A stretch of 59,194 bases of DNA from an uncultured Bacteroidales bacterium (lineage in GTDB: Bacteria; Bacteroidota; Bacteroidia; Bacteroidales; Paludibacteraceae), in NCBI GenBank assembly GCA_900321005.1, contig ONUF01000007.1, positions 1 through 59,194 of the forward strand, given 5' to 3'. This document shows positions 2,081 through 49,960 of the stretch, one piece after another; position 1 is the first letter of the stretch, and each line of letters opens with the position of its first letter. A model generated the notes under the pieces. The model ran no database searches and was not told the origin of the DNA. It saw only the letters and a program-made list of their open reading frames with translations. The translations under genes were made by a program, and so were the position numbers.

Positions 2081-2108
2081 GTGTAATGTTTAATGTGTAA
2101 TGTTTAGA
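2081..2108 (+). repeat. Period-7 tandem array between infB and lipoprotein gene
   Basis: Four heptamers alternate between GTGTAAT and GTTTAAT (last unit GTTTAGA). The array starts two bases after the infB stop and ends just before the lipoprotein start codon at 2112. It belongs to the set of short period-7 arrays scattered through the window. Confidence 0.8.
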
Positions 2109-2111
2109 GAA

Positions 2112-3371
2112 ATGAAAAAATTATCTATATTGATGCTTGCGGCGTTGAGTTTGACCGGCTGCTGGACCAGTATCTGGACGGTCGCTCCGACGGATCAGGT
2201 GGTGGTGCCGGTGAAGACCGTCTATTCCACGACCGTCACGACGCCGAAGCCCAAGACCACGACGGTCACTACAGTGACGGTCACCAATTTTAATACCGAC
2301 CTCTCGTTCTATCTCGACCTCAACGCGGTAGCTGCGGCTTTCGCGGAGTCGCGTACGGTAGCCGAGTTTGAGCAACTGCTCAATTCCACCCGGTATATGA
2401 TTAATAACCTCGACCTCAACCGCGACGGGTGGATTGACTACCTGCGCGTAATTGAGACCCACCGGGGCGTGTACCATACCTTCCTCATCCAGGCTTGTCT
2501 GGGGCATTCGCTCTATCAGGATGTAGCGACACTCGTGGCGGAACATCGTCCGAACGCGCTGTATGTGGAGGTGATCGGCGACCGTTGGTTGTATGGCCCG
2601 AACTATATCGTTCGTCCGGTCTTCGTGAAGCGTCCGCCGCTGTGGGATGTGTTCGGTCGTCCTTCGTATGCTGCTTGGTCATCGCCGTATTACTACGACT
2701 ATTGGCCGAGTTACTACCAGAAGCCGAAACCCATCTACTTGAACCACTATCAGGCGTATGTGCGCACCTACATGAACAACCATCATTATTGCCATCAGTG
2801 CGACTACCCGAAGCAGCCGTTCTATAGCGGTTACACCCAGATGACGCAGCCGAACGCGCATGATGACTATGCGGTGCGCTACCCGGATCAGTCTTTCGAA
2901 CGCCGCGTGACATCCCAGAACTCTGTGCGGAACGCAGGCCAACTGCGTGAGCAGACGGAGCGCCAGGCTTCCAAGCCCGAAGCAACGACTTCCACAAGTA
3001 CTTCTGCTGCAAAACCGGAGACCACGACTACTACGCGCCAGCCGTCCACGACTACCACGCGTACGGCTACCGGCACGGCTACTACCCGTACTTCTACGGC
3101 TACCACGTCCACGACGACCACTACCCGTACGGCTACCGGCTCATCTTCGACCCGTACGGTTACGCCTTCGACAATCGTCGAGAGCCGTGTCAACAAATCC
3201 GGTACCACCCGCACGACCATCAAGTCCACCGACGAGACAGGCCGTACCACCACCGTTAAACGCGAATCAACGAATAACACCCGTACTGCCGGCGGCTCGA
3301 GTTCTACCCGCACCTCCTCCGGTTCGAGTTCTACTCGCACTTCATCCGGCAGCAGCAGTACACGCAGATAA
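2112..3371 (+). CDS. Outer-membrane type lipoprotein with Ser/Thr-rich tail, function unknown
   Basis: I chose the ATG at 2112 because MKKLSILMLAALSLTGC is a standard lipoprotein signal peptide with lipobox LTGC; an upstream ATG at 2100 would place four extra residues before it. The middle part carries DLNRDGWIDYLRV, which fits an EF-hand-like calcium loop (DxNxDGxID), followed by a Tyr/Trp/Pro-rich stretch. The last ~130 residues are almost only Ser, Thr, Arg and Gly (TTTTRTATG, GSSSTRTSS), probably an extended surface linker. This architecture recurs in Bacteroidota but I do not recognise a named family. It sits between infB and an MBL-fold gene on the same strand, 5 bp from the latter. Confidence 0.75.
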   Translation: MKKLSILMLAALSLTGCWTSIWTVAPTDQVVVPVKTVYSTTVTTPKPKTTTVTTVTVTNFNTDLSFYLDLNAVAAAFAESRTVAEFEQLLNSTRYMINNLDLNRDGWIDYLRVIETHRGVYHTFLIQACLGHSLYQDVATLVAEHRPNALYVEVIGDRWLYGPNYIVRPVFVKRPPLWDVFGRPSYAAWSSPYYYDYWPSYYQKPKPIYLNHYQAYVRTYMNNHHYCHQCDYPKQPFYSGYTQMTQPNAHDDYAVRYPDQSFERRVTSQNSVRNAGQLREQTERQASKPEATTSTSTSAAKPETTTTTRQPSTTTTRTATGTATTRTSTATTSTTTTTRTATGSSSTRTVTPSTIVESRVNKSGTTRTTIKSTDETGRTTTVKRESTNNTRTAGGSSSTRTSSGSSSTRTSSGSSSTRR

Positions 3372-3376
3372 GTATT

Positions 3377-4210
3377 ATGGAAGAAAACGAACTCATATTC
3401 AGGTGCTTTGCCAGCGGTAGTAGTGGAAACTGCTACTATTTCGGCACGCGTCAGCGGGGTGTCCTCATTGACGCGGGCATCTCTGCGCGCCAGATACAGA
3501 AGTGTCTGCGCGACATGGGGCTCGATTTTCAAAATATCATGGGTGTGCTCATCACGCACGATCATGCCGATCATATCCGCGCGGTAGGCACACTCGGCGA
3601 ACGCGTTCACCTGCCGATCTACACGACGGCCCTCATCCACGAGGGTATAGACCGCAACTACGGCGTGCGCGAGAAACTGCGTACCAGCCGGCGCTATTTC
3701 GAGAAAGGAGTGGAGTGGGAGCTCTTTGGTATGAAGATCAACACTTTCCATATCGAGCATGACTCCACCGACTGCCTCGGATACTGCATCGACTTCCTTG
3801 GCCAGCGTTTCGTGCTCATGACCGACTGCGGCTCCGTCAACGAAGAGATGGAGGCGTATATCCGAACGGCCAACCACCTCGTCATCGAGGCCAACCACGA
3901 CGAGCACATGCTCCTCAACGGTCCGTACCCCACCTACCTCAAAGAGCGCATCCTCAGCCCTACGGGACACCAGTCCAATGACGTCTGCGGTGAACTCATC
4001 GAGCGCAACTGGCACCCGGACCTGCGAAACGTATGGTTGTGCCACCTCTCGCTCGAGAACAACGACCCGCAAGTCGCTTTCGACACCGTCAAGTCTTACC
4101 TCGACGAGATAGAGATAGAACCCGGAAAGGATATCTTCATCAAGGCACTGGAACGTACTTCGCCCAGCCCCATTTATGTATTAAATGATCAAATCATATG
4201 CAACGATTAG
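3377..4210 (+). CDS. MBL-fold metallohydrolase, WalJ/YycJ-like
   Basis: The protein has the metallo-beta-lactamase motif THDHADH (His61, Asp62, His63, Asp65, His66) that binds two metal ions, preceded by the strand FASGSSGNCYYFG typical of the YycJ/WalJ subgroup, and later metal-ligand regions FHIEHDSTD and MTDCG. At 277 residues it is of usual length. Family members are thought to act as nucleases or phosphodiesterases linked to DNA replication, repair or cell-wall regulation; the substrate here cannot be read from sequence. It starts 5 bp after the lipoprotein gene, and its last 13 bases overlap the start of the glycosyltransferase gene, so the two are probably translationally coupled. Confidence 0.88.
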   Translation: MEENELIFRCFASGSSGNCYYFGTRQRGVLIDAGISARQIQKCLRDMGLDFQNIMGVLITHDHADHIRAVGTLGERVHLPIYTTALIHEGIDRNYGVREKLRTSRRYFEKGVEWELFGMKINTFHIEHDSTDCLGYCIDFLGQRFVLMTDCGSVNEEMEAYIRTANHLVIEANHDEHMLLNGPYPTYLKERILSPTGHQSNDVCGELIERNWHPDLRNVWLCHLSLENNDPQVAFDTVKSYLDEIEIEPGKDIFIKALERTSPSPIYVLNDQIICND

Positions 4211-4932
4211 TTATCATCCCTACTTACAACGAGAAAGAGAATATAGAAGCCATCATCACGGCGGTCATGGACCTGCCGCTGGACTTCCACGTGTTGATCA
4301 TCGACGACGGTTCGCCGGACGGCACGGCTGCGATAGTCAAGCGCCTCATGGAGGGTCGCTACAAAGACCGCCTGCACTTGGTGGAGCGCTCCGGCAAACT
4401 GGGCCTCGGCACGGCTTATATCGCCGGTTTCCGCTGGGCTATAGAGCACAAAGCCGACTATATCTTTGAGATGGATGCCGACTTCAGCCACAACCCGCAG
4501 GACCTGCTCAAGCTCCATGACGCCTGTGCCAACGAAGGCGCAGACCTCGCGATTGGTAGCCGCTATGTTACCGGCGTGAATGTCGTCAACTGGCCGATGG
4601 GACGCGTGCTGATGTCCTATTTCGCTTCGAAATATGTGCGCACCGTGCTCGGCGTCGATATCCACGACACCACCGCCGGCTTCGTCTGCTACAAGCGCCA
4701 CCTGCTCGAGACCATCGAACTCGACAAGATCCGCTTCAAAGGCTATGCCTTCCAGATTGAAATGAAGTTCACCGCATCCAAGTGCGGCGCGAAGATCATT
4801 GAAGTGCCGATCGTCTTCGTCAACCGTGTACTCGGCACCTCGAAGATGTCCGGCGGTATCTTCTCTGAAGCCTTGCTTGGCGTCATCCGTCTCAAAATCT
4901 CGTCATGGTTTCGGAACTACCCTAAATTGTAA
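4198..4932 (+). CDS. Polyprenol-phosphate mannosyl/glucosyltransferase (GT2, Dpm1-like)
   Basis: This soluble or peripheral GT2 enzyme should transfer a sugar from a nucleotide donor to a polyprenyl phosphate, giving the lipid-linked sugar used in envelope glycosylation. Seen in the sequence: the N-terminal nucleotide-binding strand VIIPTYNEKENI, the first acidic motif IIDDGSPDGT (Asp36, Asp37), and the catalytic-type MDADFSHNP (Asp93, Asp95). Length (244 residues) matches bacterial Dpm1-like enzymes that lack the C-terminal membrane domain. The start overlaps the end of the MBL gene by 13 bp. Mannose versus glucose specificity is not decidable here. Confidence 0.88.
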   Translation: MQRLVIIPTYNEKENIEAIITAVMDLPLDFHVLIIDDGSPDGTAAIVKRLMEGRYKDRLHLVERSGKLGLGTAYIAGFRWAIEHKADYIFEMDADFSHNPQDLLKLHDACANEGADLAIGSRYVTGVNVVNWPMGRVLMSYFASKYVRTVLGVDIHDTTAGFVCYKRHLLETIELDKIRFKGYAFQIEMKFTASKCGAKIIEVPIVFVNRVLGTSKMSGGIFSEALLGVIRLKISSWFRNYPKL

Positions 4933-4959
4933 ATGGTAAATGACCAAATAGTAAATGGT
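4924..4959 (+). repeat. Degenerate period-7 array before argS
   Basis: Units AAATTGT, AAATGGT, AAATGAC and a later AAATGGT run through the end of the glycosyltransferase gene (its stop TAA is inside) up to the argS start. One unit is eight bases long, so the register shifts once. Confidence 0.6.
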
Positions 4960-4962
4960 TTT

Positions 4963-6759
4963 ATGACTTTAGAACAACAAATAACTTCCCTGGTAAAGGC
5001 GGCGGTGAAAGCTCTCTATGATGTCGATGCCGCCGACAACCAGATCCAATTGCAAAAAACCCGTCCGGAGTTCGAAGGAAACATCACCCTGGTGGTATTT
5101 CCCTTCGTCAAACTCGCCCGCAAAGCCCCGGCACAAGTGGCTGCCGAGATCGGCGAAAAACTGAAGACTGACGGCTCAGGGCTGATAGCTCGTTTCAACG
5201 CTGTACAGGGTTTCCTCAATCTCGTCATCGACGATGCCTTCTGGATCAAGCAGCTCCAGGCGATAGATGCCGAGCCCAATTACGGTCAGCAGCCCGATCG
5301 TCACCAACTGATGATGGTGGAATATAGTTCCCCGAACACCAACAAACCCCTTCACCTCGGTCATGTGCGCAATAACCTGCTCGGTTATTCGATTGCGAAG
5401 ATTCAAGAGGCCAACGGATGGAAAGTGGTCAAGACCAATATCGTCAACGACCGCGGTATCCATATCTGCAAATCCATGCTCGCATGGCTTAAGTTCGGTA
5501 ACGGCGAGACGCCCGAGTCCTCCGGCAAGAAAGGCGACCACCTCATCGGCGACTACTATGTGCGCTTCGACAAGGAGTACAAGGCGCAGATCGCCGAACT
5601 GATGGCGAAAGGCATGGACGAAGAGACCGCCAAGAAGGAAGCGCCGCTCATGCTCGAGGCGCAGGAGATGCTTCGTAAATGGGAAGCCAACGATCCGGAA
5701 GTGCGCGCGCTCTGGGCCAAGATGAACGAGTGGGTCTATGCCGGTTTCGATGAGACCTACAAGCGCATGGGCGTGTCGTTCGATAAGATCTATTACGAGT
5801 CGAACACCTACCTCGAGGGTAAGTCCGAAGTAGAGAAAGGACTCGCCAGCGGTGCGTTCTACCGCCGCGAAGACGGTTCGGTCTGGGCGGACCTCACCAA
5901 GGACGGTCTCGACGAGAAACTGCTGCTCCGTTCCGACGGCACCTCCGTCTATATGACCCAGGATATTGGCACGGCAAAGCTGCGCTTCCAGGACTATCCC
6001 ATCGACAAGATGGTCTATGTGGTTGGCAATGAGCAGGAGTACCACTTCAAGGTGCTTTCTATCTTGTTAGACCGGCTCGGTTTCCCCTTCGGCAAAGAAC
6101 TCGTCCATTTCTCGTACGGCATGGTTGAACTGCCGAACGGTAAGATGAAATCCCGCGAAGGAACGGTAGTCGATGCCGACGACCTGATGGATAAGATGGT
6201 CGAGGATGCCAAGGAGATTTATCTCCAGAAAAATGACCAATCACAAATGAGCAATCACCAATGCGACGAAGTCGCACGAATGGTAGGCTTAGGCGCCCTC
6301 AAATACTTCATCCTGAAGGTCGATCCGCGCAAGAACATGCTCTTCAACCCTGCGGAGTCCATCGACTTCAACGGTAACACGGGTCCCTTCATCCAATACA
6401 CCTTCGCCCGCATCCAATCGGTGCTGCGCAAGGCCACACGCGCTGAAAGCGCATTAAACGGCGAAGCCTCTACACGCGCCGAAGGCGCACTACACCCGAA
6501 GGAGTTGGACCTCATCCAACGCCTGTGCGACTATCCTTCGGCCGTCCGCGCTGCCGGAGAGGAGTTCTCGCCCGCGATCCTATGTAATTACGCGTACGCC
6601 CTCGCGTGCGATTTCAACTCGTTCTATCACGACCTGAGCATCCTCAACGAACCCGACGCGCAAAAGAAAGCCCTGCGCCTTCTGCTTGCCGCTAATGTTG
6701 CGAAGGTACTGGAGAGCGCGATGAGTCTCTTAGGCATCGAGATGCCCGAACGCATGTAA
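4963..6759 (+). CDS. argS: Arginyl-tRNA synthetase
   Basis: Class I synthetase that charges tRNA-Arg. The HIGH-type signature lies in YSSPNTNKPLHLGHVRNN (HLGH at residues 131-134), and the KMSKS region is the ArgS-type GKMKSREG. I chose the ATG at 4963 (MTLEQQITSLVKAAVKAL), which matches the family N-terminus; the ATG at 4933 adds ten residues encoded by repeat DNA. Total 598 residues. Two stretches look inserted: residues about 424-435 (NDQSQMSNHQCD), encoded by a period-7 array, and about 492-511, encoded by a duplicated GC-rich palindrome (RAESA, then RAEGA). Both keep frame and the C-terminal anticodon-binding domain continues normally, so the enzyme is probably active. Confidence 0.96.
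   Translation: MTLEQQITSLVKAAVKALYDVDAADNQIQLQKTRPEFEGNITLVVFPFVKLARKAPAQVAAEIGEKLKTDGSGLIARFNAVQGFLNLVIDDAFWIKQLQAIDAEPNYGQQPDRHQLMMVEYSSPNTNKPLHLGHVRNNLLGYSIAKIQEANGWKVVKTNIVNDRGIHICKSMLAWLKFGNGETPESSGKKGDHLIGDYYVRFDKEYKAQIAELMAKGMDEETAKKEAPLMLEAQEMLRKWEANDPEVRALWAKMNEWVYAGFDETYKRMGVSFDKIYYESNTYLEGKSEVEKGLASGAFYRREDGSVWADLTKDGLDEKLLLRSDGTSVYMTQDIGTAKLRFQDYPIDKMVYVVGNEQEYHFKVLSILLDRLGFPFGKELVHFSYGMVELPNGKMKSREGTVVDADDLMDKMVEDAKEIYLQKNDQSQMSNHQCDEVARMVGLGALKYFILKVDPRKNMLFNPAESIDFNGNTGPFIQYTFARIQSVLRKATRAESALNGEASTRAEGALHPKELDLIQRLCDYPSAVRAAGEEFSPAILCNYAYALACDFNSFYHDLSILNEPDAQKKALRLLLAANVAKVLESAMSLLGIEMPERM
6232..6266 (+). repeat. Period-7 array inside argS
   Basis: Five contiguous heptamers of the form AATnnnn (AATGACC, AATCACA, AATGAGC, AATCACC, AATGCGA) lie in frame inside argS, at about residues 424-435. 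The AATCAxC units match those of the arrays at 15106 and 20787. Confidence 0.88.
6436..6492 (+). repeat. Two copies of a 21-bp palindromic repeat inside argS
   Basis: Copies at 6436-6456 and 6472-6492 are 36 bases apart and differ at four positions. Each contains a small palindrome (GCGC-TGAAA-GCGC in the first, GCGCC-GAA-GGCGC in the second) that could fold in RNA or single-stranded DNA. Both are translated in frame, giving RAESAL and RAEGAL. Confidence 0.8.
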
Positions 6760-13520: not shown

Positions 13521-14532
13521 GCCGGCTACGTGGCTGTTGCACATTGCCCTGGGGATCATTGTCCTCGGGGCATGTGTGACGCATTTCTTCGGCGAACATG
13601 GCGAGATACACCTGCGCGCCGATCAGGCACAGACTCTAACCGTTCGCCATTCGTCCGTTAGCCTCTTTCTTTGGGATTTTCATATTGTGAGTGATGCGGA
13701 CGGTAACCCCGTGGACTTCATATCCGAACTGCGTCTGTTAGACCGGCGTGCGAAGACACCAGTGGTGGACGAAGGCATCGTACGGATGAACAAGCCGCTT
13801 AAATACCACGGTTTTCGCTTTTGTCAGTCGGACTACGACAGCGACCTGCAAGGCGTGGTGCTGGCGTATAACTACGACCCTTGGGGCATCGTGATCACCT
13901 ATGCCGGTTATGCGTTGCTGCTCGTTGCGATGATTGCCTTTTTCACACAGAAAAACACCGGTTTTCGTGCGGTTCTGAAGAAGTCCGTGCTCTATCAGCG
14001 CCGCGGTTTATACGCCATCAGCGCAGGGGTTCTGATCGTCCTTCTGGCGGTCGTTATGACGCGTGCGGTGACTCCCAAACCGCCTTTGCAACCCGTGCTA
14101 CAGACGCCGCTACTCGGCATCCATGTGAGCGTGATCATGCTGGCATACACGCTTTTTGCGGTCATTATGATCAACGGTATTCTCGGGCTATGTATGCCCA
14201 AGCGCCGCGAACAGATCCTATATGTGTCACACGTGCTGCTGTATCCGGGCTTGTTCAGTCTGACCGCCGGTATCTTCATCGGCGCGGTTTGGGCGAACAT
14301 GTCCTGGGGACGGTATTGGGGATGGGACCCGAAGGAGACCTGGGCGCTTATCACGATGCTTGTCTATGCCGCGCTGCTTCATTTGCCGTGGCTGAAAAAT
14401 AAATGTGCCCTCTCCAAAGACCGGTTTGCTATCGTTTATCACGTCTGTAGCGTGGTCGCTTTCGCCTTCGTGTTATTCACCTATTTTGGCGTGTCTTACC
14501 TGCTCGGAGGACTTCATTCGTACGCAAATTAA
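13513..14532 (+). CDS. Cytochrome c haem-lyase, ResB/CcsB-CcsA fusion
   Basis: Inner-membrane protein that exports haem and attaches it to apocytochromes. I prefer the ATG at 13513 (MLSKPATWLLHIALG), which overlaps the DHOR stop in ATGCTATCTAA; a GTG-type start at 13489 would add eight residues. An N-terminal ResB-like part with one transmembrane helix and periplasmic segment is followed by CcsA-type helices with the haem-handling WWD-like motif WGRYWGWDPKETWALI (about residues 263-278). At 339 residues it is a compact version. A period-7 repeat encodes residues about 42-51 (LTVRHSSVSL), in the periplasmic part. Its position after the di-haem cytochrome suggests a dedicated maturation factor. 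Confidence 0.86.
   Translation, partial: LSKPATWLLHIALGIIVLGACVTHFFGEHGEIHLRADQAQTLTVRHSSVSLFLWDFHIVSDADGNPVDFISELRLLDRRAKTPVVDEGIVRMNKPLKYHGFRFCQSDYDSDLQGVVLAYNYDPWGIVITYAGYALLLVAMIAFFTQKNTGFRAVLKKSVLYQRRGLYAISAGVLIVLLAVVMTRAVTPKPPLQPVLQTPLLGIHVSVIMLAYTLFAVIMINGILGLCMPKRREQILYVSHVLLYPGLFSLTAGIFIGAVWANMSWGRYWGWDPKETWALITMLVYAALLHLPWLKNKCALSKDRFAIVYHVCSVVAFAFVLFTYFGVSYLLGGLHSYAN
13637..13665 (+). repeat. Period-7 array inside the ccsBA-like gene
   Basis: Degenerate heptamers with a recurring CCGTTCG / CCATTCG / CCGTTAG core lie in frame. The same core in the same orientation recurs in the TonB receptor gene at 22183-22215. Confidence 0.6.
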
Positions 14533-14606: not shown

Positions 14607-15494
14607 ATGTATAAGTCAACTGATAAGATTTGCGATCTGATGGCGCATGAGGAAGATGCAATCCAGATCATCAGCCGTTTTGGGCTTGAGATGGGAGTGG
14701 GGGAGCAGACGATAGCGGAGGTGTGCGAGGCGCATGACGTGCATACGCCGACCTTCCTGGCCATCGTCAATTACAAGGTCTTCCACCAGCGCGCGATACC
14801 CGAAGATATCGACCTGCCGACGCTCCAACGCTACCTGCGTAATGCCCACACGTATTTCCTCGACTTTCGCCTGCCGCGCCTGCGCCGGGCACTTGTCGAA
14901 GCTATCATCCCTGCCGACCCGACGACGAAGATACCGGGACTGATCCTGCGGTGCTACGACGAGTTCGTGGACGAGATCCGCACGCATATCGAGCATGAGA
15001 ACGAAGGACGCTATGACGAGCACGAACACGACGACCAGCGCATCACCGACAAACTGACGGAGATCAAAAACCTCATCATCAAGTACTACCCGTCGCAAGA
15101 AGAACAATCATCAATCAGCAATCATCAATCACCAATCACCTATCTCCTGATAGGTGTCATGTCCGACCTATGGCACACGGAGCTGGATTTTGCGGACCAT
15201 TGTGCCATCGAGGACGATATCCTGCGCCCGGCCTTAAGCCAAGAGAACGTGCATGGACACCGCCGGCACATCATGCCCCAGACCGAAGAACTGAGTGAGC
15301 GCGAGAAAGATGTGCTGATACAGGTGGTGAAAGGACTGAGTAACAAAGAGATAGCCGATGTGCTCTGTATCTCTATGCACACCGTCATATCGCATCGCAA
15401 GAACATCGCCCGCAAACTGAATATTCACTCTACGGCGGGTCTGACGATCTATGCGATCGTGAATAAACTGGTGGATCTGAACAGCCTGGAATAA
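14607..15494 (+). CDS. Hemerythrin-like (RIC/ScdA-type) sensor fused to a LuxR DNA-binding domain
   Basis: Start at ATG 14607 is set by the promoter just upstream. Residues 1-50 (KICDLMAHEEDAIQIISRFG...) resemble the DUF542 region at the N-terminus of ScdA/YtfE iron-centre repair proteins. Residues about 75-215 form a helical hemerythrin-like part with candidate di-iron ligands His81, the HIEHENE cluster (His127, His130, Glu131) and WHTELDFADHCAIEDD (His190, His198, Glu202). Residues about 225-290 are a LuxR/GerE helix-turn-helix (LSEREKDVLIQVVKGLSN). This suggests a transcription factor that senses iron, O2 or NO through a di-iron site. It follows the iron/cytochrome locus. A period-7 array encodes residues about 167-178, between two hemerythrin helices. 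Confidence 0.85.
   Translation: MYKSTDKICDLMAHEEDAIQIISRFGLEMGVGEQTIAEVCEAHDVHTPTFLAIVNYKVFHQRAIPEDIDLPTLQRYLRNAHTYFLDFRLPRLRRALVEAIIPADPTTKIPGLILRCYDEFVDEIRTHIEHENEGRYDEHEHDDQRITDKLTEIKNLIIKYYPSQEEQSSISNHQSPITYLLIGVMSDLWHTELDFADHCAIEDDILRPALSQENVHGHRRHIMPQTEELSEREKDVLIQVVKGLSNKEIADVLCISMHTVISHRKNIARKLNIHSTAGLTIYAIVNKLVDLNSLE
15106..15140 (+). repeat. Period-7 array inside the hemerythrin-LuxR gene
   Basis: Five contiguous heptamers: AATCATC, AATCAGC, AATCATC, AATCACC, AATCACC. Nearly the same units form the mutS-side array at 20787-20821. Here they are translated (SSISNHQSPIT) in the linker between hemerythrin helices. Confidence 0.92.
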
Positions 15495-20786: not shown

Positions 20787-20821
20787 AATCATCAATTATC
20801 AATCATCAATCATCAATCACC
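20787..20821 (+). repeat. Period-7 array between TonB receptor and mutS
   Basis: Five heptamers: AATCATC, AATTATC, AATCATC, AATCATC, AATCACC. The stop codon of the TonB receptor gene (TGA, 20817-20819 on the minus strand) is inside the last unit. Confidence 0.92.
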
Positions 20822-23327
20822 TAAGGTCCACTGTGACCTTTAGGTTAAACCGTCTGCCGGTCAGGTAGTTCGGACTGGCCCACTGTCTGCCGAAGGCGTC
20901 TGCCACCCAGAAATAGGAGTTGACATTCCGCCATCCGACGAGGTTGAACACCTCGAACTGGATCGCCCACTGCTTGACGTGCTTCGCGCTCGGCGCGCGC
21001 ATGAATTTGGCCGTCTGGGCATTGAAGACATAGGTCGCGCCCAGGTCGATACGCTTGTACATCGGCATGCGTCCCCAACTGAGGTTATTGCGCGGCGCGT
21101 AGAACGGCTGGCCTTCGGCAAACTGCATCTTTAGATGGAACTTGAGTTGCGGCAGTTGGGGGATATAATCCTGGAAGAGCATGGAGAAGTTCCACCGCTG
21201 TTCGGTAGGACTGGGTATCCACGGACCTCCGGTGATAAACCGTTGCCGCGCCATCATCGTGGAGAACGATATCCAGGAGTCCGCGCCGGGCACTAACTCG
21301 CCGTACAGCTTGAGGTCCAGTCCCGTGGCATAGCCTTGCGAATCGTTCTTGCCCGAGTAGCGCACGCGCACATTATCCACCGTATAACTCTCCATCCGGT
21401 CGATATGCTTGTAATAGCCCTCCATCGTGAATTTGAAGGGGCGGCCCCATGCGCGGAAATAATAGTCGCCGCCGAGCACAAGATGCACGGAGCGCTGCGC
21501 CTTGAGGTCTTTGTTGAGATGAATACGCGTCACGCCGAGTGCGTCGGTGATCGTGTCGCGCAACTCCTTATAGAACGGCGCCTGGTAGTACAGACCCGTC
21601 GCGAGACGGAAACAGAAATCGCGCTTCCAACCCGGTATCCACTCGATGGACGCGCGGGGCGAGGGCAGTACTTCGTTGTTCCAACTCCACCACTGGAGCC
21701 GGCCGCCGACGGTCAGTATCCACTGGCCCGAAGTTGTGTTCCATTTATGCTCGTTCTGCAGGTAGGCTTGTATGCGCCCGGTCGTCATGTCGGAGCGCCC
21801 GCGCAGGGTGTAGAACAACTCCATCGAGTGGCCGTCGTCGGGCATCGAATAACCCGCCGAGTCGCGCCATTCCCACTCGCTGATATAGTCGCGAATCAGT
21901 TCCGCCTGACCGCTCACGCCCCAGGACAAGGTATTCTGTCCGCGCTTCCATGCGCCGTGATGCGCGAGCGTGATGACACTCGCCTCGAGGACGTTCCGCG
22001 CGTGCAGGTGATAGATACCTGTGCCGAGCATGTCCGTCTGAGCGGAGGCATCGATTTGGTCTTCACGCGAATAGGACGACGAGGAACTGCCGGAAGGACC
22101 GTTGGACAGTACATATTCACCGGTGATGTCGAAGTTCTCTCGCTCGTTGGAGTAATAGCCCGAGAGGTCAATATTGAACATTAGCCGTTCGCCCTCAGCC
22201 ATTAGCCTTTCATTCTTTGCGCTCAGCGCCGCAAAAGCCGTGAGGAAGCGGTCTTTCTCCTGACCCTCGTAATAGATATTGAGCGTCTTGGCGTTCTGTC
22301 CGCCGAAAGACTCGCTCAGACTGTCCGGCGTGAAGCGGTAGTCGTTCTGACTGACATTGCCGAGAAACGACATCGACCAGTTACTCTTTGTACTTTCATC
22401 TAGACGGCTTCTTTCAACTTTCAACTTTCTACTTTTCAACTTCCACGTGATATAGGTCTGGTAGTCCAGGTAGGTCGGTTGGTAATTGCCGGTCGTGGCG
22501 AGTCCGCCGAGCATGTACTTGCTGGTCTTGTAGCGCAGGCCGTGCATCATGGAGTAGGTGCTGTCGCCGTGTCCTACATAGAGCTGTGCGCCTAAGAGAC
22601 TCGCGCTGAGACTCGCCTCGAAGGCCGTCGGACGCTTGTACGTGATATCGAGCACAGACGCCATCTTGTCGCCGTATTGGGCTCCGTAACCGCCTGCCGA
22701 GAAATGTACGTTCTCCACCATCTCGGGGTTCACGAAACTCAATCCCTCCTGTTGTCCGGAGCGGATGAGCAGCGGGCGGTGTACCTCGATGCCGTTGACA
22801 TAGACCGAGTTCTCGTCGAACGACCCGCCGCGGACATTATACTGGCTGCTCAGTTCGTTCGTCTGACTCACGCCGGCGAAGGTGATGAGCAGCGACTCGA
22901 TGGAACCGCCCGTAGCGTCCGGCATGACGCGTGTCGTGGACGCGTCGATATGGTCCATCGTGCCTTGCGTATGCTTGATACCGCGCACCTCTATCTCCGT
23001 CAACACCTGTTCGTCTGTCAGCATTTGTACGTTGATATTGATCACATCGCGCACATCGAAGATACGTTGCTGCACGGTCGTATAACCGATCATAGAGTAG
23101 GCGAGTACCACCGTGTCCGCTTCGTCGAGCAGCAGTTCGTAATAGCCGTTTTTGTTGGTCGCAGTACCGATAGGCCGGTCGGCGTTCAGTACTGCTACGT
23201 TCGCCAATTCGATACCGATATTGTCCTGATCCACCACATACCCGTATATACGCGCCGTGCGCGCGTACGAAAAAAGACTGCAGGAACACAGCAACAAAAA
23301 GTTTACTATTTTTAAAATTTTACGCAT
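20817..23327 (-). CDS. TonB-dependent outer-membrane receptor with carboxypeptidase-like N-domain
   Basis: 836 residues. The signal peptide (MRKILKIVNFLLLCSCSLFSYA) is followed by a CarboxypepD_reg-like domain (RIYGYVVDQDNIGIELANVAV), a plug (VSQTNELSSQYNVRGGSFDENSVYVNGIEV) and a barrel ending FNLKVTVDL. No SusD partner is adjacent, so it is probably not a glycan importer; the ligand is unknown. Two stretches are encoded by period-7 arrays: residues about 294-314 (including KLKVERS) and about 371-381 (NERLMAEGERLM). The gene lies between engB and mutS, with its stop inside another array. Confidence 0.9.
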   Translation of the reverse strand: MRKILKIVNFLLLCSCSLFSYARTARIYGYVVDQDNIGIELANVAVLNADRPIGTATNKNGYYELLLDEADTVVLAYSMIGYTTVQQRIFDVRDVININVQMLTDEQVLTEIEVRGIKHTQGTMDHIDASTTRVMPDATGGSIESLLITFAGVSQTNELSSQYNVRGGSFDENSVYVNGIEVHRPLLIRSGQQEGLSFVNPEMVENVHFSAGGYGAQYGDKMASVLDITYKRPTAFEASLSASLLGAQLYVGHGDSTYSMMHGLRYKTSKYMLGGLATTGNYQPTYLDYQTYITWKLKSRKLKVERSRLDESTKSNWSMSFLGNVSQNDYRFTPDSLSESFGGQNAKTLNIYYEGQEKDRFLTAFAALSAKNERLMAEGERLMFNIDLSGYYSNERENFDITGEYVLSNGPSGSSSSSYSREDQIDASAQTDMLGTGIYHLHARNVLEASVITLAHHGAWKRGQNTLSWGVSGQAELIRDYISEWEWRDSAGYSMPDDGHSMELFYTLRGRSDMTTGRIQAYLQNEHKWNTTSGQWILTVGGRLQWWSWNNEVLPSPRASIEWIPGWKRDFCFRLATGLYYQAPFYKELRDTITDALGVTRIHLNKDLKAQRSVHLVLGGDYYFRAWGRPFKFTMEGYYKHIDRMESYTVDNVRVRYSGKNDSQGYATGLDLKLYGELVPGADSWISFSTMMARQRFITGGPWIPSPTEQRWNFSMLFQDYIPQLPQLKFHLKMQFAEGQPFYAPRNNLSWGRMPMYKRIDLGATYVFNAQTAKFMRAPSAKHVKQWAIQFEVFNLVGWRNVNSYFWVADAFGRQWASPNYLTGRRFNLKVTVDLR
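22183..22215 (+). repeat. Period-7 array inside the TonB receptor gene (first)
   Basis: Degenerate heptamers AGCCGTT, CGCCCTC, AGCCATT, AGCCTTT. Translated on the minus strand as NERLMAEGERLM in a barrel segment. The units resemble those in the ccsBA-like gene at 13637. Confidence 0.65.
22386..22446 (+). repeat. Period-7 array inside the TonB receptor gene (second)
   Basis: Heptamers CTTTGTA, CTTTCAT, then after a short break CTTTCAA, CTTTCAA, CTTTCTA and an 8-base unit. The minus-strand translation includes LKVERS, also produced by the engB array at 23831. Confidence 0.85.
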
Positions 23328-23370
23328 GTATAGCTGTACGGGTTAATCTCAGGGTCTTATCGGGGTCAAA

Positions 23371-23437
23371 CTTTCAACTTTCAACTCTCCACTTTCCTAC
23401 TTCTTTCAACTCTCAACTCTCAACTCTCAACTTCCAT
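23371..23437 (+). repeat. Long period-7 array between engB and TonB receptor
   Basis: At least eight heptamers of the CTTTCAA / CTCTCAA type with two slipped units. It ends exactly at the engB stop codon (23437-23439). Confidence 0.92.
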
Positions 23438-24072
23438 TATACCGATTCATTCAACTCTTCGATGTAATTGGTAAGTTCCTCTCCGCCCATGCCGGTCTCG
23501 GACGAGGTGACGAAGATCGGCGGCAGTTCTTCCCATTCCTCTAAAAGGCGGTTCTTGTATGCCTCCACGTTCTCTTTGAGCCGCACTTTGCCTAACTTGT
23601 CGCCCTTGGTGAAGACGATCGCAAACGGCACGCCGTTCTCGCCGAGCCATGCCATGAACTCGAGGTCGATCTTCTGCGGTTCATGCCGGCAATCCACCAG
23701 CACGAACAGACATACCATCTCCTCGCGCAGCAGGCAATACCGCTCGATCATTCGTCTCAGCGCTTCGCGTTGCTTCAATCCCGTCTGCGCAAATCCGTAC
23801 CCCGGCAGATCCACCAAGAACCACTGCCTACTTTCTACTTTTCCACTTCTTTCAACTTTCAACTCTCCACTTTCAACTAAAAAATGGTTGATGAGCAAGG
23901 TCTTGCCGGGTTTCTGACTCGTCTTCGCCAACTTCGGGTTATGGCATAGCATATTGATGAGGCTGGACTTGCCTACATTACTGCGCCCGATAAATGCGTA
24001 CTCGGGTTTTCCCGTCTTCGGACAATCCTTGACGTCCGGACTGGAGATGATATATGTGGCGTTTCGTATCAT
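23437..24072 (-). CDS. engB: Ribosome biogenesis GTP-binding protein EngB/YsxC with a repeat-encoded insertion
   Basis: Essential GTPase in large-subunit assembly. Start at ATG 24072 ([20 protein letters not shown]), a typical N-terminus; the frame is open upstream but only through the promoter. G1 is GRSNVGKS (residues 29-36), G3 is DLPG (88-91) and G4 is TKGD. Between INHFLV and WFLVDLPG, where other EngB proteins have two or three residues, there is an extra ~16-residue segment (about 67-83, including [14 protein letters not shown]) encoded by a period-7 array. It lies in the turn just before the Walker B strand. The total of 211 residues exceeds the usual ~195-200. Confidence 0.95.
23831..23876 (+). 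repeat. Period-7 array inside engB
   Basis: Heptamers CTTTCTA, CTTTCAA, CTTTCAA, CTCTCCA, CTTTCAA with two slipped units. The order of units around CTCTCCA matches the intergenic array 400 bp away at 23371, so the two appear related by copying. Confidence 0.9.
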
Positions 24073-26935: not shown

Positions 26936-27153
26936 GAGTTAGGTATTATTTTTCTGTTTCTCGCGGATGATAGCTTGGATGAAGTTGTCCAATTTGGAGA
27001 TTTCTTTTACTGGGGCATAATGTCAGTTCTTGGCAATTTTTGGCGGTTTCTTGTGCAAACCTCGGGTTCATCCGGGCTGAATATCATCCTAATCACGCAG
27101 TAACGACCCTGTAATCACCCCGTAATCACCCCCTTTACACTTCTTTAAATGTT
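26936..27153. other. Intergenic region without protein gene
   Basis: Between the MBG promoter and the small RNA terminator. It contains three imperfect copies of GTAATCACCCC at about 27095-27135; otherwise I see nothing in it. Confidence 0.4.
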
Positions 27154-30300: not shown

Positions 30301-30680
30301 AGAAACATGCAGACGGACGCAAAACCGAAGTCACTATGACGGGAGTATGATGTATATTCTCCTATGCCGACGCGTAGTGATCCTCCCAATCCGACGTATA
30401 GTTTCTTCTGGTAGTCATAGGCGGCTTGTACGGATAAATGAGCAGGTTCGTCCGTTATATCATAAAAATCATTGGAAAAATACTCAATCCCATAATAATC
30501 GATATACTCGTCATAATAACGGTTATACTCGTCATAAGGATCAGCCATAGTAAGCGTGATACTGTCTAACGTCGCTTTATCAAATTGCGACAAGTAGCCA
30601 TTCCGACGCCACAGATTCACTTGCGCGAAGGCTCCGATAGCCAGCACAAGGGCTAAACCGATAGTATATATTCTTTTCAT
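27330..30680 (-). CDS. Giant SusD/RagB-like secreted protein (1116 residues), no SusC partner
   Basis: The signal peptide MKRIYTIGLALVLAIGAFAQ lacks a lipobox cysteine, unlike normal SusD. After it comes NLWRRNGYLSQFDKATLDSITL, an N-terminal motif shared with the protein at 56178. Residues about 75-620 look SusD-like: the N-terminal helical part with TCYKTIGACNYVI, TPR-like AKAMRAFEYMQLAQAYQAAY, and the C-terminal DWIVMRAEELILLRAEALARAGKNGAAVL and RRVELWGEGFAFGDLMRL blocks. The remaining ~500 residues hold beta-rich domains (LPVGTYQFTIAVPDEYCQGT resembles domains that follow SusD in other proteins). Normal SusD is 500-650 residues and follows a SusC gene; neither holds here. The gene is 5 bp after a small sorted protein. 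Confidence 0.82.
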   Translation of the reverse strand: MKRIYTIGLALVLAIGAFAQVNLWRRNGYLSQFDKATLDSITLTMADPYDEYNRYYDEYIDYYGIEYFSNDFYDITDEPAHLSVQAAYDYQKKLYVGLGGSLRVGIGEYTSYSRHSDFGFASVCMFLDSRGQDFIGPDDVYNWFSVWGDPAHWRDTWTPTSTRTTAGLADYQIWNTCYKTIGACNYVIATHTSGSEADQYEVAQAKAMRAFEYMQLAQAYQAAYSDNSLSLPCVPLVTEPLLQYMVLAQPVATVAQVYAQIKKDLDDAISGLQGFVRADKSAINRAVAFGLRARYNLWTHHYEQAASDAEQALLLSGATPLSIAEANQPGFADASAHNVLWANIINEEDAVIQAGDDAIINWVSHMSTLYQQGYSGVVGATRSIASALYNEIPASDVRKGWWLNENLESPLLDAPGYNAAKAAIQSKAENVYVNVKFGTGDGTTSGRAAAAGDWIVMRAEELILLRAEALARAGKNGAAVLKDFMKTYRDPSYDIDAHGLSVADEIWWQRRVELWGEGFAFGDLMRLHKGVVRTTSTNWPDAWAQDVPAGDERFPLALPEKDPKYKVLAVWQNGVNNLYKSYYTTLSNVDSITLGEAREIDDVRIYDFGINKSYSSSGFIFTRSFKEGHMGELSDTLKLRFSRSHNIINPLDVPLIIEADPVFAGTAFPKSISFEGGRDYSYGIAAIDTSFVVNVKELPVGTYQFTIAVPDEYCQGTLPYGSQTFTYQIIVNEPDEWDEAEIRTGIFVDQTVGPAFGIGVNAWYVEFQTVENPDGSWRLRMLNPYASYASGPADADGIYDGNPWTEEGDVDTSKDYNFVLNISPDGEVRFPDLRTYLGIGWGDYTEQCFVDYAAGTGAAGTYGRYEKENGKIVFDAQDNSMLFGTGSEIYSIQANFVFYLSKAAYLADQVEVEEEPVDADVNTYVGNWKLQGRDLFSIAGAEAKVVIATNVDEDGQYYTIAGIHPDVPVVYGVFNEKDHRLNIISTRGTPVEEGGVTYNTTFYPLNSGYSISGSITIDFEPAEDGTLVLSANSDGIGFAVMYENPDDEEDYDIAMAWDQLGFVPSEAAGAPAKIAKRNGKQSIPAREATVKRPAKELVKKNIRLLNSNKEFQKMTK

Positions 30681-31538: not shown

Positions 31539-33009
31539 ACCCTCCGAGGGCACACAGGGTAATGCACCCGGCGATGAGATAACCAATCCATCGGTATTCC
31601 TCCGGCAGGTGCAGTCCTTCCGGCGCGATGAGGATGTAACTGCTGCATACCATCGTCATGAACAGCGCAGGGATGAGCGCAATCAGGTATCCGAAACGAT
31701 AGGGGTTGTCATGGATCTTCGCTTCATGCCGGTAGAGCCACACGGTGCCCGTCCAGAGCGTGAAGACCGCCAGTGTCTGGTTGGTCCATGCGAAATAGCG
31801 CCATACCACGTTGAAATCCACAAAAACCATTCCGAAGACGCAGAAGAAAAGCGGCAAAGCAATCAGCAATCGCTTGCGCGGCGGTTTCTGGTCCATATTC
31901 AGATAGTCCGCTACGATGAGTCGCGCGGAACGGAGGGCAGTGTCTCCGCTGGTGATCGGCGCGGCTATGACACCTATGATCGCCAATACACCACCTACTA
32001 TGCCCAGCCAGGAACGACTCACTTTATCTATGACGAGCGCTGCGATATTCTCTCCCGGGTGCTGTGCCGCAAAGGATTGCAGGCCGTCAATGCCATACAG
32101 ACCCTTTTCCGGATCCGCGAAGAAAGTACCTGCGGCTGCTGCCCAGATAAGCGCTAAGATACCTTCAGCAACCATCGCGCCGTAGAAGATCCAGCGACCC
32201 TGACGCTCGTTGGTCACACAACGCGCCATGATCGGACTCTGCGTGCCGTGAAAACCCGATATGGCACCGCAAGCAATAGAGACGAACATCATCGGGAAGA
32301 GCGGCAGGCCATTCGTCTGTCTGTTATGTAATCCGTCGAACACTTCCGGCATCTCGGCGCTATGCCATCCCAGCATCACTACCATGATTCCGATGCCCAT
32401 GAAAAGCAACATCGCACCGAAAATAGGGTAGAAACGACCGATCAGCTTATCGACAGGCAGTACCGTCGCTAATGCATAATAACCGAAGATAATCAGTACC
32501 CACGAGATAGGAATAGTGGATAGATGAAAGTGGATGGAGGAAAGGGGACAAAGACCTTGCAGCAACGTAGCAGGGCCGCTCAGGAAAGTGGTGGTGAGTA
32601 GGATCAGCAAGACCAGACTCAGCGCACGCATAAGCGTCTTCACGGCATGACCCATCTCATCACCGATGATATCCGGCAACGAATAGCCTAACTTGCGGAT
32701 AGAGAGCATGCCGCTTAAGTAATCATGTACACCGCCGGCGAAAATCGTTCCGAAGACAATCCACAGGAAGGCGGCGGGACCGTAGAAGATACCCATGATT
32801 GCTCCGAAAATCGGACCGAGTCCTGCGATGTTCAGGAATTGTACGAGGAAGATACGCCACGGCGCCATCGGTACAAAATCCACTCCGTCCGTCTTTGTCA
32901 ATGCCGGCGTCTTGCGCTCCGGATCAATGACGAAAATCTTCTCCACCAAAGTGCCGTAGGTAAAGAACCCTACAATCAGGAGCAATAATGCAATAATAAA
33001 GGTTACCAT
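31510..33009 (-). CDS. cstA: Carbon starvation protein CstA family peptide/pyruvate transporter
   Basis: Multi-helix inner-membrane transporter of the CstA family, which takes up peptides or pyruvate. Diagnostic stretches are LNIAGLGPIFGAIMG, FAGGVHDYLSGMLSIR, SGFHGTQSPIMARCV and ITSGDTALRSARLI. 499 residues, typical of the short Bacteroidota form (E. coli CstA is ~700). Residues about 156-164 (SSIHFHLSTIPI) fall between two helices where the family has little sequence, and are encoded by a period-7/14 repeat. Its 3' end overlaps the 71-residue protein gene on the opposite strand. Confidence 0.92.
   Translation of the reverse strand: MVTFIIALLLLIVGFFTYGTLVEKIFVIDPERKTPALTKTDGVDFVPMAPWRIFLVQFLNIAGLGPIFGAIMGIFYGPAAFLWIVFGTIFAGGVHDYLSGMLSIRKLGYSLPDIIGDEMGHAVKTLMRALSLVLLILLTTTFLSGPATLLQGLCPLSSIHFHLSTIPISWVLIIFGYYALATVLPVDKLIGRFYPIFGAMLLFMGIGIMVVMLGWHSAEMPEVFDGLHNRQTNGLPLFPMMFVSIACGAISGFHGTQSPIMARCVTNERQGRWIFYGAMVAEGILALIWAAAAGTFFADPEKGLYGIDGLQSFAAQHPGENIAALVIDKVSRSWLGIVGGVLAIIGVIAAPITSGDTALRSARLIVADYLNMDQKPPRKRLLIALPLFFCVFGMVFVDFNVVWRYFAWTNQTLAVFTLWTGTVWLYRHEAKIHDNPYRFGYLIALIPALFMTMVCSSYILIAPEGLHLPEEYRWIGYLIAGCITLCALGGFIAWAYRRK
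32516..32543 (+). repeat. Period-7/14 repeat inside cstA
   Basis: Two 14-base units, GTGGATAGATGAAA then GTGGATGGAGGAAA, each readable as two heptamers. Translated on the minus strand as SSIHFHLST. Confidence 0.75.
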
Positions 33010-33211: not shown

Positions 33212-33886
33212 TCATTTTTTTGTAAAAACACGGTAATTGTACCATTTTCTGTCCTCAAAGCGGCTAAAAATGGCATAGCACACGATTGTGATGAGACATC
33301 CGACGAGCATGCCGCCAAATACATCCGCCGTGAAATGTTGGCTTAGATAAATACGGCTGTACCCGCCCACCGCGGCGGCAAAAAAGAGCAGGAATTGGAT
33401 CAAATCTCTAGACAATCTAGAGAGTCTAGAGTCTCTAGTTAACAAAACACACACCGCAAAGGTCAACGCGAAGAAACTCGTCGTATGCCCGGAGGGGAAG
33501 GATAGCCAGTAGTTCATCCTCACTCCTTCGGCTAAGGGAAGTTGTACGTCCGGCATGTGCTCCGCAAACCATGTGAGAGGGCGGGGGGCCACCAGAATAT
33601 GCTTGATGATCTGTGTGGTAAGTGCCGCGAATGCCTGGCAGGCTGACGCAAACAGTCCGTCGCCGAGTCGTCCGAAAAGCAGGATGGCGACGCACACTAC
33701 GTACGGGAACCATTCGGCTACCTGCGTATAATACCTATAGAATATATCGCGCGCGGGCGTGTGATGGTCGCATAGCAGCAAGTGCAACTCTCCCTTCGGA
33801 ACGCATAAAAGGGCTAAGCCCAATGCTATCAAAAGCATCAGGCTTAGCGATATAAAAACGGCATTTTGTCGAAAGAGGTTTCTCAT
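33212..33886 (-). CDS. PAP2-family membrane phosphatase
   Basis: Integral membrane lipid phosphatase with the three PAP2 motifs: KHILVAPRP (KX6RP), FPSGHTTSF (PSGH) and SRIYLSQHFTADV (SRX5HX3D). Likely substrates are undecaprenyl pyrophosphate or phosphatidylglycerol phosphate type lipids. 224 residues with about five or six helices. Residues about 150-160 (TRDSRLSRLSRD), at the turn between the PSGH helix and the next one, are encoded by a CTAG-rich repeat. The start overlaps the upstream IgGFc-like gene by 4 bp (ATGA). Confidence 0.9.
   Translation of the reverse strand: MRNLFRQNAVFISLSLMLLIALGLALLCVPKGELHLLLCDHHTPARDIFYRYYTQVAEWFPYVVCVAILLFGRLGDGLFASACQAFAALTTQIIKHILVAPRPLTWFAEHMPDVQLPLAEGVRMNYWLSFPSGHTTSFFALTFAVCVLLTRDSRLSRLSRDLIQFLLFFAAAVGGYSRIYLSQHFTADVFGGMLVGCLITIVCYAIFSRFEDRKWYNYRVFTKK
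33405..33439 (+). repeat. CTAG-rich short tandem repeat inside the PAP2 gene
   Basis: Four CTAGA / CTAG units at 7-10 base spacing. The CTAG core also forms the intergenic array at 49922. In frame, encoding SRLSRLSRD on the minus strand. Confidence 0.7.
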
Positions 33887-47497: not shown

Positions 47498-47517
47498 TTT
47501 TTAATACTATAATTTTT

Positions 47518-47545
47518 AATTATCAATTATCAATCATCAATTAAA
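47518..47545 (+). repeat. Period-7 array between OB-fold lipoprotein and PpiD genes
   Basis: Heptamers AATTATC, AATTATC, AATCATC, AATTAAA. The stop codon of the lipoprotein gene (TGA, 47537-47539 minus) lies in the third unit, as in the array at 20787. Confidence 0.88.
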
Positions 47546-48521: not shown

Positions 48522-48557
48522 TAAATAGGAAAAAAAGTGAAAAAAAAATCAATTTTC

Positions 48558-49227: not shown

Positions 49228-49324
49228 GCAAACCGCAAGTCGTAGGGCTTACCTTGGAACTCCCATGAACTGTGAGCGGCTGCCTGAGACTGCGTATTTA
49301 TTAACAAACTAAATTATTTTTAAA
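49228..49324 (+). other. infC-rpmI intercistronic region
   Basis: 97 bases with some G/C-rich potential pairing (AGTCGTAGGGCTTACC region). In other bacteria L20 binds near this place to repress rpmI-rplT; I cannot show that structure here. Confidence 0.35.
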
Positions 49325-49522
49325 ATGCCAAAGGTAAAAACGAACTCCGGTGCAAAAAAGCGTTTCACGCTTACCGGAACCGGTAAAATCAAGCGTAAGC
49401 ACGCTTACAAGAGTCACATTCTGACGAAGAAGACTAAAAAGCAAAAACGCAACTTGACTCATGTTGCTATCGTAGATCATTCGAACACACGCTCCATCCG
49501 CGAGATGTTGTTGCTTCGTTAA
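49325..49522 (+). CDS. rpmI: Ribosomal protein bL35
   Basis: 65 residues with the bL35 core [40 protein letters not shown] and the end SIREMLLLR. Very basic, as expected for a protein buried in the large subunit. Second gene of the infC operon. Confidence 0.97.
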
Positions 49523-49552
49523 GTGTAACCATTAAAGTGAAAGGACAAGAAC

Positions 49553-49921
49553 ATGCCAAGATCAGTTAATCACGTTGCTTCGCGCAACCGTCGTAAAAAG
49601 ATCATGAGCCTTACCCGTGGTAACTTTGGTGGCCGCGCTAATGTATGGACCGTAGCAAAGAACACATGGGAGAAAGGTTTGCAGTACGCTTACCGCGATC
49701 GTAAGAACAAAAAACGTACCTTCCGTGCCCTCTGGATCCAGCGTATCAACGCTGCTGCACGCCTCGAGGGACTGAGCTACAGCCAACTCATGGGCTGCCT
49801 CAAGAAAGCAGGTATCGTCATCAACCGCAAGGCTCTCGCTGACCTCGCTATGAATCAACCCGCTGCCTTCAAAGCAGTCGTTGACCAAGCAAAGAAAAAA
49901 GCAGAGAAAGCTGCGAAGTAA
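49553..49921 (+). CDS. rplT: Ribosomal protein bL20
   Basis: 122 residues. The N-terminal helix [20 protein letters not shown] and the central [20 protein letters not shown] and [20 protein letters not shown] are conserved. A short Lys/Ala tail ([11 protein letters not shown]) makes it slightly longer than usual. It ends the operon and is followed by a repeat and a terminator. In several bacteria bL20 also represses its own operon. Confidence 0.97.
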
Positions 49922-49960
49922 CCTAGTATCCTAGTTTCCTAGAATTCTAGTATTCTGGTT
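49922..49960 (+). repeat. CTAG-type period-8 array after rplT
   Basis: Near-octamers CCTAGTAT, CCTAGTTT, CCTAGAATT, CTAGTATT, CTGGTTCT. The CTAG core is shared with the repeat inside the PAP2 gene. Confidence 0.8.

What the first reader, a model, noticed from the sequence alone, without database searches (positions are those of the whole stretch)
2081..49960. Fourteen short tandem arrays, mostly period 7, both between genes and in frame inside conserved genes
Arrays at 2081, 4924, 6232, 13637, 15106, 20787, 22183, 22386, 23371, 23831, 32516, 33405, 47518 and 49922 consist of degenerate units, nearly always of seven bases. They fall into families by unit: AATCATC/AATCACC, CTTTCAA/CTCTCAA, CCGTTCG-like, CTAG-like and others. 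Eight lie inside coding sequences without breaking frame, although seven is not a multiple of three. The same unit families occur between and inside genes, so they look like products of a spreading or slippage process rather than chance. MutS is intact in this window. I know of no named element with this behaviour. It could be a templated repair or duplication signature, a source of protein loop variation, or binding sites for a nucleoid protein.
Basis: partly seen in the sequence, partly recalled or inferred. Interest (0 to 1): 0.82.

Follow-up and report, generated by a model that had tools for sequence, protein, structure and literature searches.

The report
Seven-base repeats that swap their sequence
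The genome of this gut bacterium is sprinkled with short seven-base repeat tracts, between genes and inside working genes, and related species often carry tracts of different seven-base words at the same spots, so the rhythm and the place last while the letters change.

Summary
The window lies in a genome whose named relatives are Paludibacteraceae MAGs (rumen and hindgut). In 459 kb of it, lag-7 arrays number 78 against 1 in a Markov simulation; lags 1-6 are nearly absent, 8, 9 and 11 minor. In 245 genes, 32 lag-7 arrays stand against a mean of 0.6 with synonymous codons exchanged. Eighty argS-centred loci of named relatives show 248 against 2; eleven genomes of other families of the order show 2 in 181 kb; within the family it is patchy.

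Main features: (1) unit families belong to a genome (AATCATC twice: 141 places here, 0-20 in 11 congeners; CCTTTCG twice: 42 in G014, 0-8 in 18 others); (2) orthologous loops in sisters often carry heptamer arrays of other units (26 of 60 loops against 6 of 297 control stretches); (3) survivors sit in spacers and permissive loops, in frame.

Best reading: heptanucleotide arrays of the known STRR/LSSR type, made and rewritten by 7-base template misalignment and filtered by reading-frame selection. Copying between arrays is plausible, not proven. New variant of a known kind.

The parts
2079..2106 (+). Array ATGTGTA/ATGTTTA between the gene read by eye as infB (ORF end 2079) and the next gene
   Evidence: of 80 relatives' loci only 5 reach this gene end: L179, L180, L181 have an array with shifted units, the nearest relatives L176 and L177 none
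4922..4959 (+). Array TAAATGG-like across the end of the gene before argS and up to the probable argS start at 4963
   Evidence: relatives have other spacers
6231..6263 (+). In-frame array AATGACC/AATCACC in argS, between two predicted helices (codons 423-434)
   Evidence: TRF period 14, p 0.002; L178 has AATGTCC and L183 AATGACC units at the same loop and same length
13637..13665 (+). Weak CCGTTCG-like stretch in the cytochrome c assembly gene
   Evidence: lag 7 11/21, p 0.035; not in TRF at score 30
15103..15148 (+). In-frame array AATCATC/AATCACC in a LuxR-type regulator gene
   Evidence: of 4 sister loops one (L124, G006) is periodic, unit ACCTATC, 6 of 7 letters alike
20787..20823 (+). 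Array AATCATC/AATTATC at the spacer between mutS and the TonB-dependent receptor gene
   Evidence: 32 bases identical to an array in L016:7985 on another contig
22183..22215 (-). Degenerate CATTAGC-like stretch in the TonB-dependent receptor gene
   Evidence: lag 7 14/21, p 0.0075
22386..22445 (-). In-frame array CTTTCAA in the TonB-dependent receptor gene
23366..23436 (-). Array CTTTCAA/CTCTCAA in the spacer upstream of the TonB-dependent receptor gene
   Evidence: shares 26 bases with the array in the EngB-like gene about 480 bases away
23831..23878 (-). In-frame array CTTTCAA in the EngB-like GTPase gene
   Evidence: loop length and sequence vary in congeners
32509..32548 (-). Degenerate period-14 stretch in cstA
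   Evidence: TRF, p 0.0025; same-length, non-identical segment in L091 of G015
33406..33438 (-). Period-9 CTCTAGAGA stretch in the PAP2 gene; not a heptamer array
47510..47543 (+). Array AATTATC/AATCATC between two genes
49917..49953 (+). Period-8 AGTATCCT array just after a stop codon; not a heptamer array

Best explanation
These are degenerate heptanucleotide tandem arrays of the STRR/LSSR kind, unusually abundant in this lineage and unusual in sitting in frame inside conserved genes. Shown: period 7 dominates, unit families are characteristic of a genome, and the same spacer or protein loop often keeps a 7-base rhythm while its unit differs between species. Inferred: during DNA synthesis the growing strand misaligns by one 7-base unit; returning to register rewrites a unit to match its neighbour without changing length, and not returning adds or drops units. 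Loops of 7 bases escape mismatch repair, so periods 1-6 are nearly missing. Misalignment onto other arrays in the genome probably spreads a unit, which would give each genome its own families. Selection removes events that break a frame or a fold, so survivors lie in spacers and permissive protein loops. Why 7 is preferred over 8 or 9 is not explained.
For: Lag spectrum: at 13 of 14 matches, lag 7 47, lag 8 6, lag 9 5, lag 11 7, lags 1-6 together 3, one simulation 0 for lags 1-12. Codon controls. 80 relatives' loci: 248 against 2. Orthologous loops of 19 genes: 26 of 60 sister loops periodic at lag 7, 0 after shuffling, 6 of 297 control stretches, 0 of 60 at lags 5, 6, 8-11; 15 of the 26 share at most 4 of 7 letters with the unit of this genome. 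ArgS in 81 species: four loops hold 12, 6, 2 and 14 arrays of differing units, shuffled 0 at that cut-off; loop I is exactly 75 bases in 48 of 81. Genome-specific families; unit similarity within genomes above all 500 label permutations and highest within 500 bases (5 of 11 pairs share at least 6 letters). Close pairs: in argS loop II, L204 has 36 array bases where L188 has 21 ordinary bases; between L222 and L227 one array (39 bases) faces an array of another unit (36 bases) between identical flanks. MutS and MutL present.
Against: 34 of 60 sister loops are not periodic at lag 7 and 3 of 19 genes have no periodic sister. Exchange of whole arrays between close relatives looks like replacement by another allele, so recombination between species may explain part of the turnover. 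Copying between unlinked arrays is not established: shared blocks of at least 22 bases exceed a unit-order shuffle (27 against 3-17 in ten shuffles), but with clumping kept the excess is small (24 against 15.4; across contigs 16 against 11.4). Sites that differ between species keep the 7-base match in both (35-42% in ArgS loops I, II and IV; other lags below 14 give 4.5-29%), but that cannot tell in-place rewriting from wholesale swaps. No mutation was observed directly.
Confidence: 0.6

Rival explanations
1. Each species' arrays are independent insertions of a spreading short repeat (a mobile or selfish element like the Rickettsia palindromic elements) into tolerant loops.
For: Genome-specific families; probable gains in loops that lack arrays in the sisters compared: a GH105-like gene (0 of 2 sisters periodic) and a RodA/FtsW-like gene (0 of 4); other repeats occupy the same loops in G002 and G006.
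Against: No fixed element, ends or length seen; units and copy numbers vary; array versions differ from array-free ones by amounts such as +15 that are not multiples of 7 and with host bases lost; 20 of 60 loops have equal length in the sister.
Confidence: 0.15
2. Interspecies recombination: loops and spacers are exchanged as alleles among coexisting rumen species, and arrays ride along.
For: L212 and L227 share a loop-I array while L222, closest to L227, has a non-periodic version of the same length; the YLQK-like version of the argS site occurs in scattered species (L195, L196, L229, L252 besides L176, L177, L178, L183).
Against: Does not create period 7 or genome-specific families over unlinked sites; several units in ArgS loops II and IV appear in a single species among the rows listed.
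Confidence: 0.15
3. Binding sites for a single-strand or nucleoid protein, or translation signals upstream of starts, as proposed for TAACTGA repeats.
For: Density is six times higher outside genes (56.8 against 9.3 per 100 kb) and many arrays fill short spacers up to a start codon; heptamer-spaced binding by cold-shock proteins is cited in PMC4679880.
Against: Units often differ between congeners at the same site; nearly half of the arrays lie inside genes (36 of 78).
Confidence: 0.05
4. Assembly or binning artefact.
For: The named relatives appear to be MAGs by their titles; repeats are error-prone.
Against: Same pattern in 80 records of several independent projects (RUG, RGIG, UBA, metaWRAP, SUG); argS as read has no stop or frame break in 81 of 81 species.
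Confidence: 0.02

Closest known systems
Heptanucleotide STRR of cyanobacteria (recalled) and long simple sequence repeats, LSSR (Mrazek et al. 2007, seen only as quoted in PMC4679880)
   Same: 7-base tandem units, several families in a genome, heptamers the commonest class in most LSSR-rich genomes, slippage proposed
   Different: Here nearly half lie in frame in genes, and the unit often changes between congeners at the same place
TAACTGA direct repeats of Beggiatoaceae, cyanobacteria and five Bacteroidetes including Paludibacter (PMC4679880, passages read)
   Same: Heptamer repeats, often just upstream of starts; some relatives have shorter spacers without repeats
   Different: One fixed unit there, related heptamers rarely repeated; here many units, with a TAACTGA consensus (listed as its rotation AACTGAT) in 1 of 78 arrays
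P6b stem-loop of the Nostoc trnL intron, Class I TDNGATT and Class II NNTGAGT repeats (PMC4476775 and PMC3488679, passages read)
   Same: Same site, period 7, repeated replacement of one heptamer class by another
   Different: One RNA stem-loop with two classes; here protein loops and spacers genome-wide with many units
Rickettsia palindromic elements (recalled; one search gave listings only)
   Same: Repeats in frame within conserved protein genes
   Different: Those are longer palindromic elements with a consensus of their own; no such element was seen here
Tandem repeats of Borg elements (PMC9879509, abstract and passages read)
   Same: Rapidly evolving repeats between and inside genes, adding flexible protein segments
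   Different: Those give perfect amino-acid repeats; here degenerate units of 7, not a multiple of 3, on bacterial contigs

Membership tests
Heptanucleotide STRR/LSSR | Tandem 7-base units in clear excess over chance | tested here: met
Heptanucleotide STRR/LSSR | Several degenerate unit families dispersed over the genome | tested here: met
Heptanucleotide STRR/LSSR | Mainly outside genes | tested here: inconclusive
   six-fold denser outside genes, but 36 of 78 arrays inside genes
TAACTGA repeats | Unit TAACTGA | tested here: not met
   1 of 78 arrays has that consensus; AATCATC (11), AATCAGT (7), AATTATC (7) lead
Rickettsia-type palindromic element | Element of defined length and consensus with palindromic structure | tested here: not met
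   no common length or unit at orthologous sites
Phase-variable simple repeat | Copy-number change switches a gene between states within a population | not testable with these tools
   no population reads; coding arrays kept in frame in conserved genes
Borg-type amino-acid tandem repeat | Perfect repeats encoding whole amino-acid units | tested here: not met
   units degenerate and 7 bases long, so three successive units are read in three frames

The most novel reading that the evidence does not exclude
A dedicated copying activity of this lineage (a polymerase with a 7-base step, or a trans-acting template) keeps overwriting unconstrained DNA with the heptamers current in that genome, so that spacers and protein loops are rewritten genome-wide each time the current unit changes.
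Probability: 0.12. Interest if true: 0.88.

Novelty: new variant of a known kind. Interest (0 to 1): 0.62.

Why it matters
It gives a natural experiment on why heptamers are the favoured long simple repeat of bacteria: some 80 species, the same loops, many units, conserved proteins as a built-in filter. It points to a mutational source of protein loop variation that is neither point mutation nor transposition, and it warns that tree-building and annotation across such loops compares unrelated letters.

Tried and rejected
Pure insertion: rejected; array versions stand in place of host bases (L188/L204, 21 against 36 bases). My first reading, that the argS array of this genome itself replaced 48 conserved bases, was too strong: the altered YLQK version is shared with L176, L177, L178 and L183, so it is older than the present unit. 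Copying of whole blocks between unlinked arrays: excess against a unit-order shuffle shrank with clumping kept; left open. A concerted-substitution test proved unable to separate in-place rewriting from swaps. A palindromic repeat in argS loop IV (6436-6489) as a second genome-wide family: 6 places against 2 for the reversed control, only the two in argS exact, and the window count is within chance; rejected. The ArgS model (18 sequences, mean pLDDT 66.4) is mediocre; it places the loops between predicted helices and strands (residues 70-74, 104-114, 424-430, 496-511) and supports no more. Papers: (Paludibacteraceae with tandem repeat) found 0 papers; some searches were broader and I read only listings and, for four papers, passages; none of the listed titles reports this for Paludibacteraceae. 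The library is open-access only.

Choices and dropped rows: 19 of the 38 coding arrays were chosen by eye (recognisable conserved genes) for sister comparison; their gene names (M20-type peptidase, RodA/FtsW-like, GH105-like and the like), and infB, are my reading of the sequence, not a call. Of the 115 matches reported only part were fetched (30 loci there, 20 stretches); tblastn hits under 60% of the best score and beyond six per gene were left out; one duplicate row (L145 for one gene) was dropped. Gene calling was greedy longest-ORF, and two rules gave 38/40 and 36/42 inside/outside genes. Sister stretches were picked around orthologues of array genes, which biases their array density upward; the 80 loci are centred on argS, itself an array gene here. 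G027 was left out of the order comparison (3.2 kb). In one search seven genomes of other families had 1-11 AATCATC places each. Of 25 closest pairs listed, five were aligned; one of these (L189/L190) has no array.
Full report
OBSERVATION. The window is contig C21 of a 2.12-Mb, 54-contig genome whose nearest named relatives are Paludibacteraceae or Bacteroidales MAGs, many from rumen and hindgut. Eight of the 14 listed places pass a strict lag-7 criterion. Three more are degenerate period-7 or period-14 arrays (6232, 22183, 32516), one is weak (13637), and two have period 9 (33405) and 8 (49922). Eight lie in genes, as stated.

EXCESS. In 459 kb (20 stretches plus the window) lag-7 runs number 78, against 1 in one simulation of order 3; lags 14 and 21 follow as multiples, lags 8, 9 and 11 are minor. 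With a stricter cut-off lag 7 has 47 and lags 1-6 together 3. In 245 genes of at least 600 bases the 32 arrays compare with a mean of 0.6 (maximum 2 of 20 replicates) when synonymous codons are exchanged within a gene. Density is 9.3 per 100 kb in genes and 56.8 outside. Of 36 coding arrays the consensus unit is free of stop codons in all frames on the sense strand in 24 and on the antisense strand in 13.

EXTENT. Eighty argS-centred loci of named relatives (1.23 Mb) hold 248 lag-7 runs against 2 simulated; lag 8 gives 73 against 4 and lag 11 53 against 2. Eleven genomes of other families of the order hold 2 in 181 kb. Twenty other genera of the family hold 46 in 369 kb, of which 21 in one 20-kb stretch (G060) and 12 in another (G061), and none in ten: the trait is patchy in the family.

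UNITS BELONG TO GENOMES. AATCATCAATCATC with at most one mismatch occurs 141 times in this genome (reversed control 2), 0-20 times in 11 congeners and 1-11 times in seven genomes of other families. CCTTTCGCCTTTCG occurs 42 times in G014 (control 0) and 0-8 times in the 18 other genus members searched. Over 257 arrays, unit similarity within genomes (4.43 of 7) exceeds every one of 500 label permutations (mean 4.16, maximum 4.29); the effect is clear but moderate, because each genome has many families. In this genome 15% of pairs on different contigs share at least 6 of 7 letters, and 5 of 11 pairs at 50-500 bases; between the 80 genomes it is 6.6%.

PLACES LAST, UNITS CHANGE. For 19 coding arrays of this genome, chosen by eye from 38, I compared orthologues in up to five close congeners (one row comes from G014). 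26 of 60 sister loops are periodic at lag 7, against 6 of 297 control stretches of the same genes and 0 of 60 at lags 5, 6, 8, 9, 10 and 11; 16 of 19 genes have at least one such sister, and 34 of 60 loops are not periodic. Only 2 of the 26 have the same consensus unit; 15 share at most 4 letters (random heptamers of the same composition average 3.96 with both strands allowed). A gene read by eye as an M20-type peptidase shows five species with five units: AATCAGY here, AATTCTC, GCCAACA, ATACACC, GATACCC. In argS of 81 species, four loops hold 12, 6, 2 and 14 arrays; loop I is 75 bases long in 48 species although its units range over GGCTAAT, GGTGAAT, GGACATT and others. In a mediocre ArgS model these stretches lie between helices and strands.

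GAINS AND SWAPS. Against L188 (94% identical outside the loops), L204 has 36 array bases in place of 21 ordinary bases in argS loop II. L227 and L222 (96% outside the loops) have different 99-base versions of argS loop I, only that of L227 periodic; elsewhere in the same two loci an array of one unit (39 bases) faces an array of another (36 bases) between identical flanks. L177 carries an array that L176 lacks, net 21 bases (coding status not checked). In a RodA/FtsW-like gene (0 of 4 sisters periodic) and a GH105-like gene (0 of 2) the array here is a probable gain. Net changes are multiples of 3 by the way the codons were aligned, mostly not of 7 or 21; 20 of 60 are zero and 7 are +21.

MECHANISM. 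The simplest account is 7-base template misalignment. Returning misalignment rewrites a unit without length change, which fits constant length with changing letters in reading frames. Non-returning misalignment adds or removes units and survives in frame or in spacers. Mismatch repair is present (MutS; MutL) and, by general knowledge, removes short loops but not loops of 7; the near-absence of periods 1-6 agrees. Genome-specific families at unlinked sites need something more: misalignment onto other arrays, or a genome-wide bias. Block sharing hints at the former (for example 32 identical bases in the mutS spacer and on contig C28) but does not stand out clearly under the stricter control. Exchange with other species probably adds to it. 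The preference for 7 itself is unexplained.

KNOWN KINDS. Heptanucleotide repeats are known from cyanobacteria (STRR, recalled), from a survey that found heptamers the most abundant class in most repeat-rich genomes (Mrazek 2007, as quoted in PMC4679880), from Beggiatoaceae and five Bacteroidetes (TAACTGA, PMC4679880, passages), and from the Nostoc trnL intron, where one heptamer class has repeatedly replaced another at one site (PMC4476775, passages). The finding extends that last behaviour to a whole genome and to protein genes. I file it as a new variant of heptanucleotide arrays. One search, the one search that named the family together with tandem repeats, found no paper; some searches were broader.

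LIMITS. The named relatives appear to be MAGs, no population reads were seen, gene calls are rough, array genes for the sister comparison were chosen by eye, most gene names outside the window come from no call, and the permutation and shuffle controls do not model phylogeny.

Noticed in passing
L131, L151, L156 (G002), L118 (G006), L200 argS loop IV: Loops that carry heptamers here hold another repeat in other species (GTCAGCGAAGCGGTCT-like, encoding SEAVCQRSGLS or similar), so tolerant loops collect several repeat classes.
   Followed up: partly
window 6436-6489: Two copies of ACACGCGCYGAARGCGCA, 36 bases apart, in argS loop IV; not a genome-wide family.
   Followed up: yes
G002, G015, G007, G016 stretches: Some congeners favour period 8 (G002 12 lag-8 against 9 lag-7 runs; G015 6 and G007 3 also raised) and one period 9 (G016, 6 in 20 kb); lag 11 is also raised across the genus.
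   Followed up: no
argS codons about 420-440 in L195, L196, L229, L252 and in L176, L177, L178, L183: A divergent YLQK-like version of a conserved ArgS stretch occurs in scattered species, which suggests exchange of gene segments between species.
   Followed up: partly
L298 (G060, another genus of the family): 21 lag-7 arrays in 20 kb, the densest of the 20 stretches of other genera.
   Followed up: no
window 27090-27132 and 30491-30537: An 11-base (TAATCACCCCG, 3.9 copies) and a 21-base tandem repeat.
   Followed up: no
L222 argS loop I, L233 argS loop IV: Palindromic CCTCCC...GGGAGG-like inserts in the same loops that carry heptamers in relatives.
   Followed up: no
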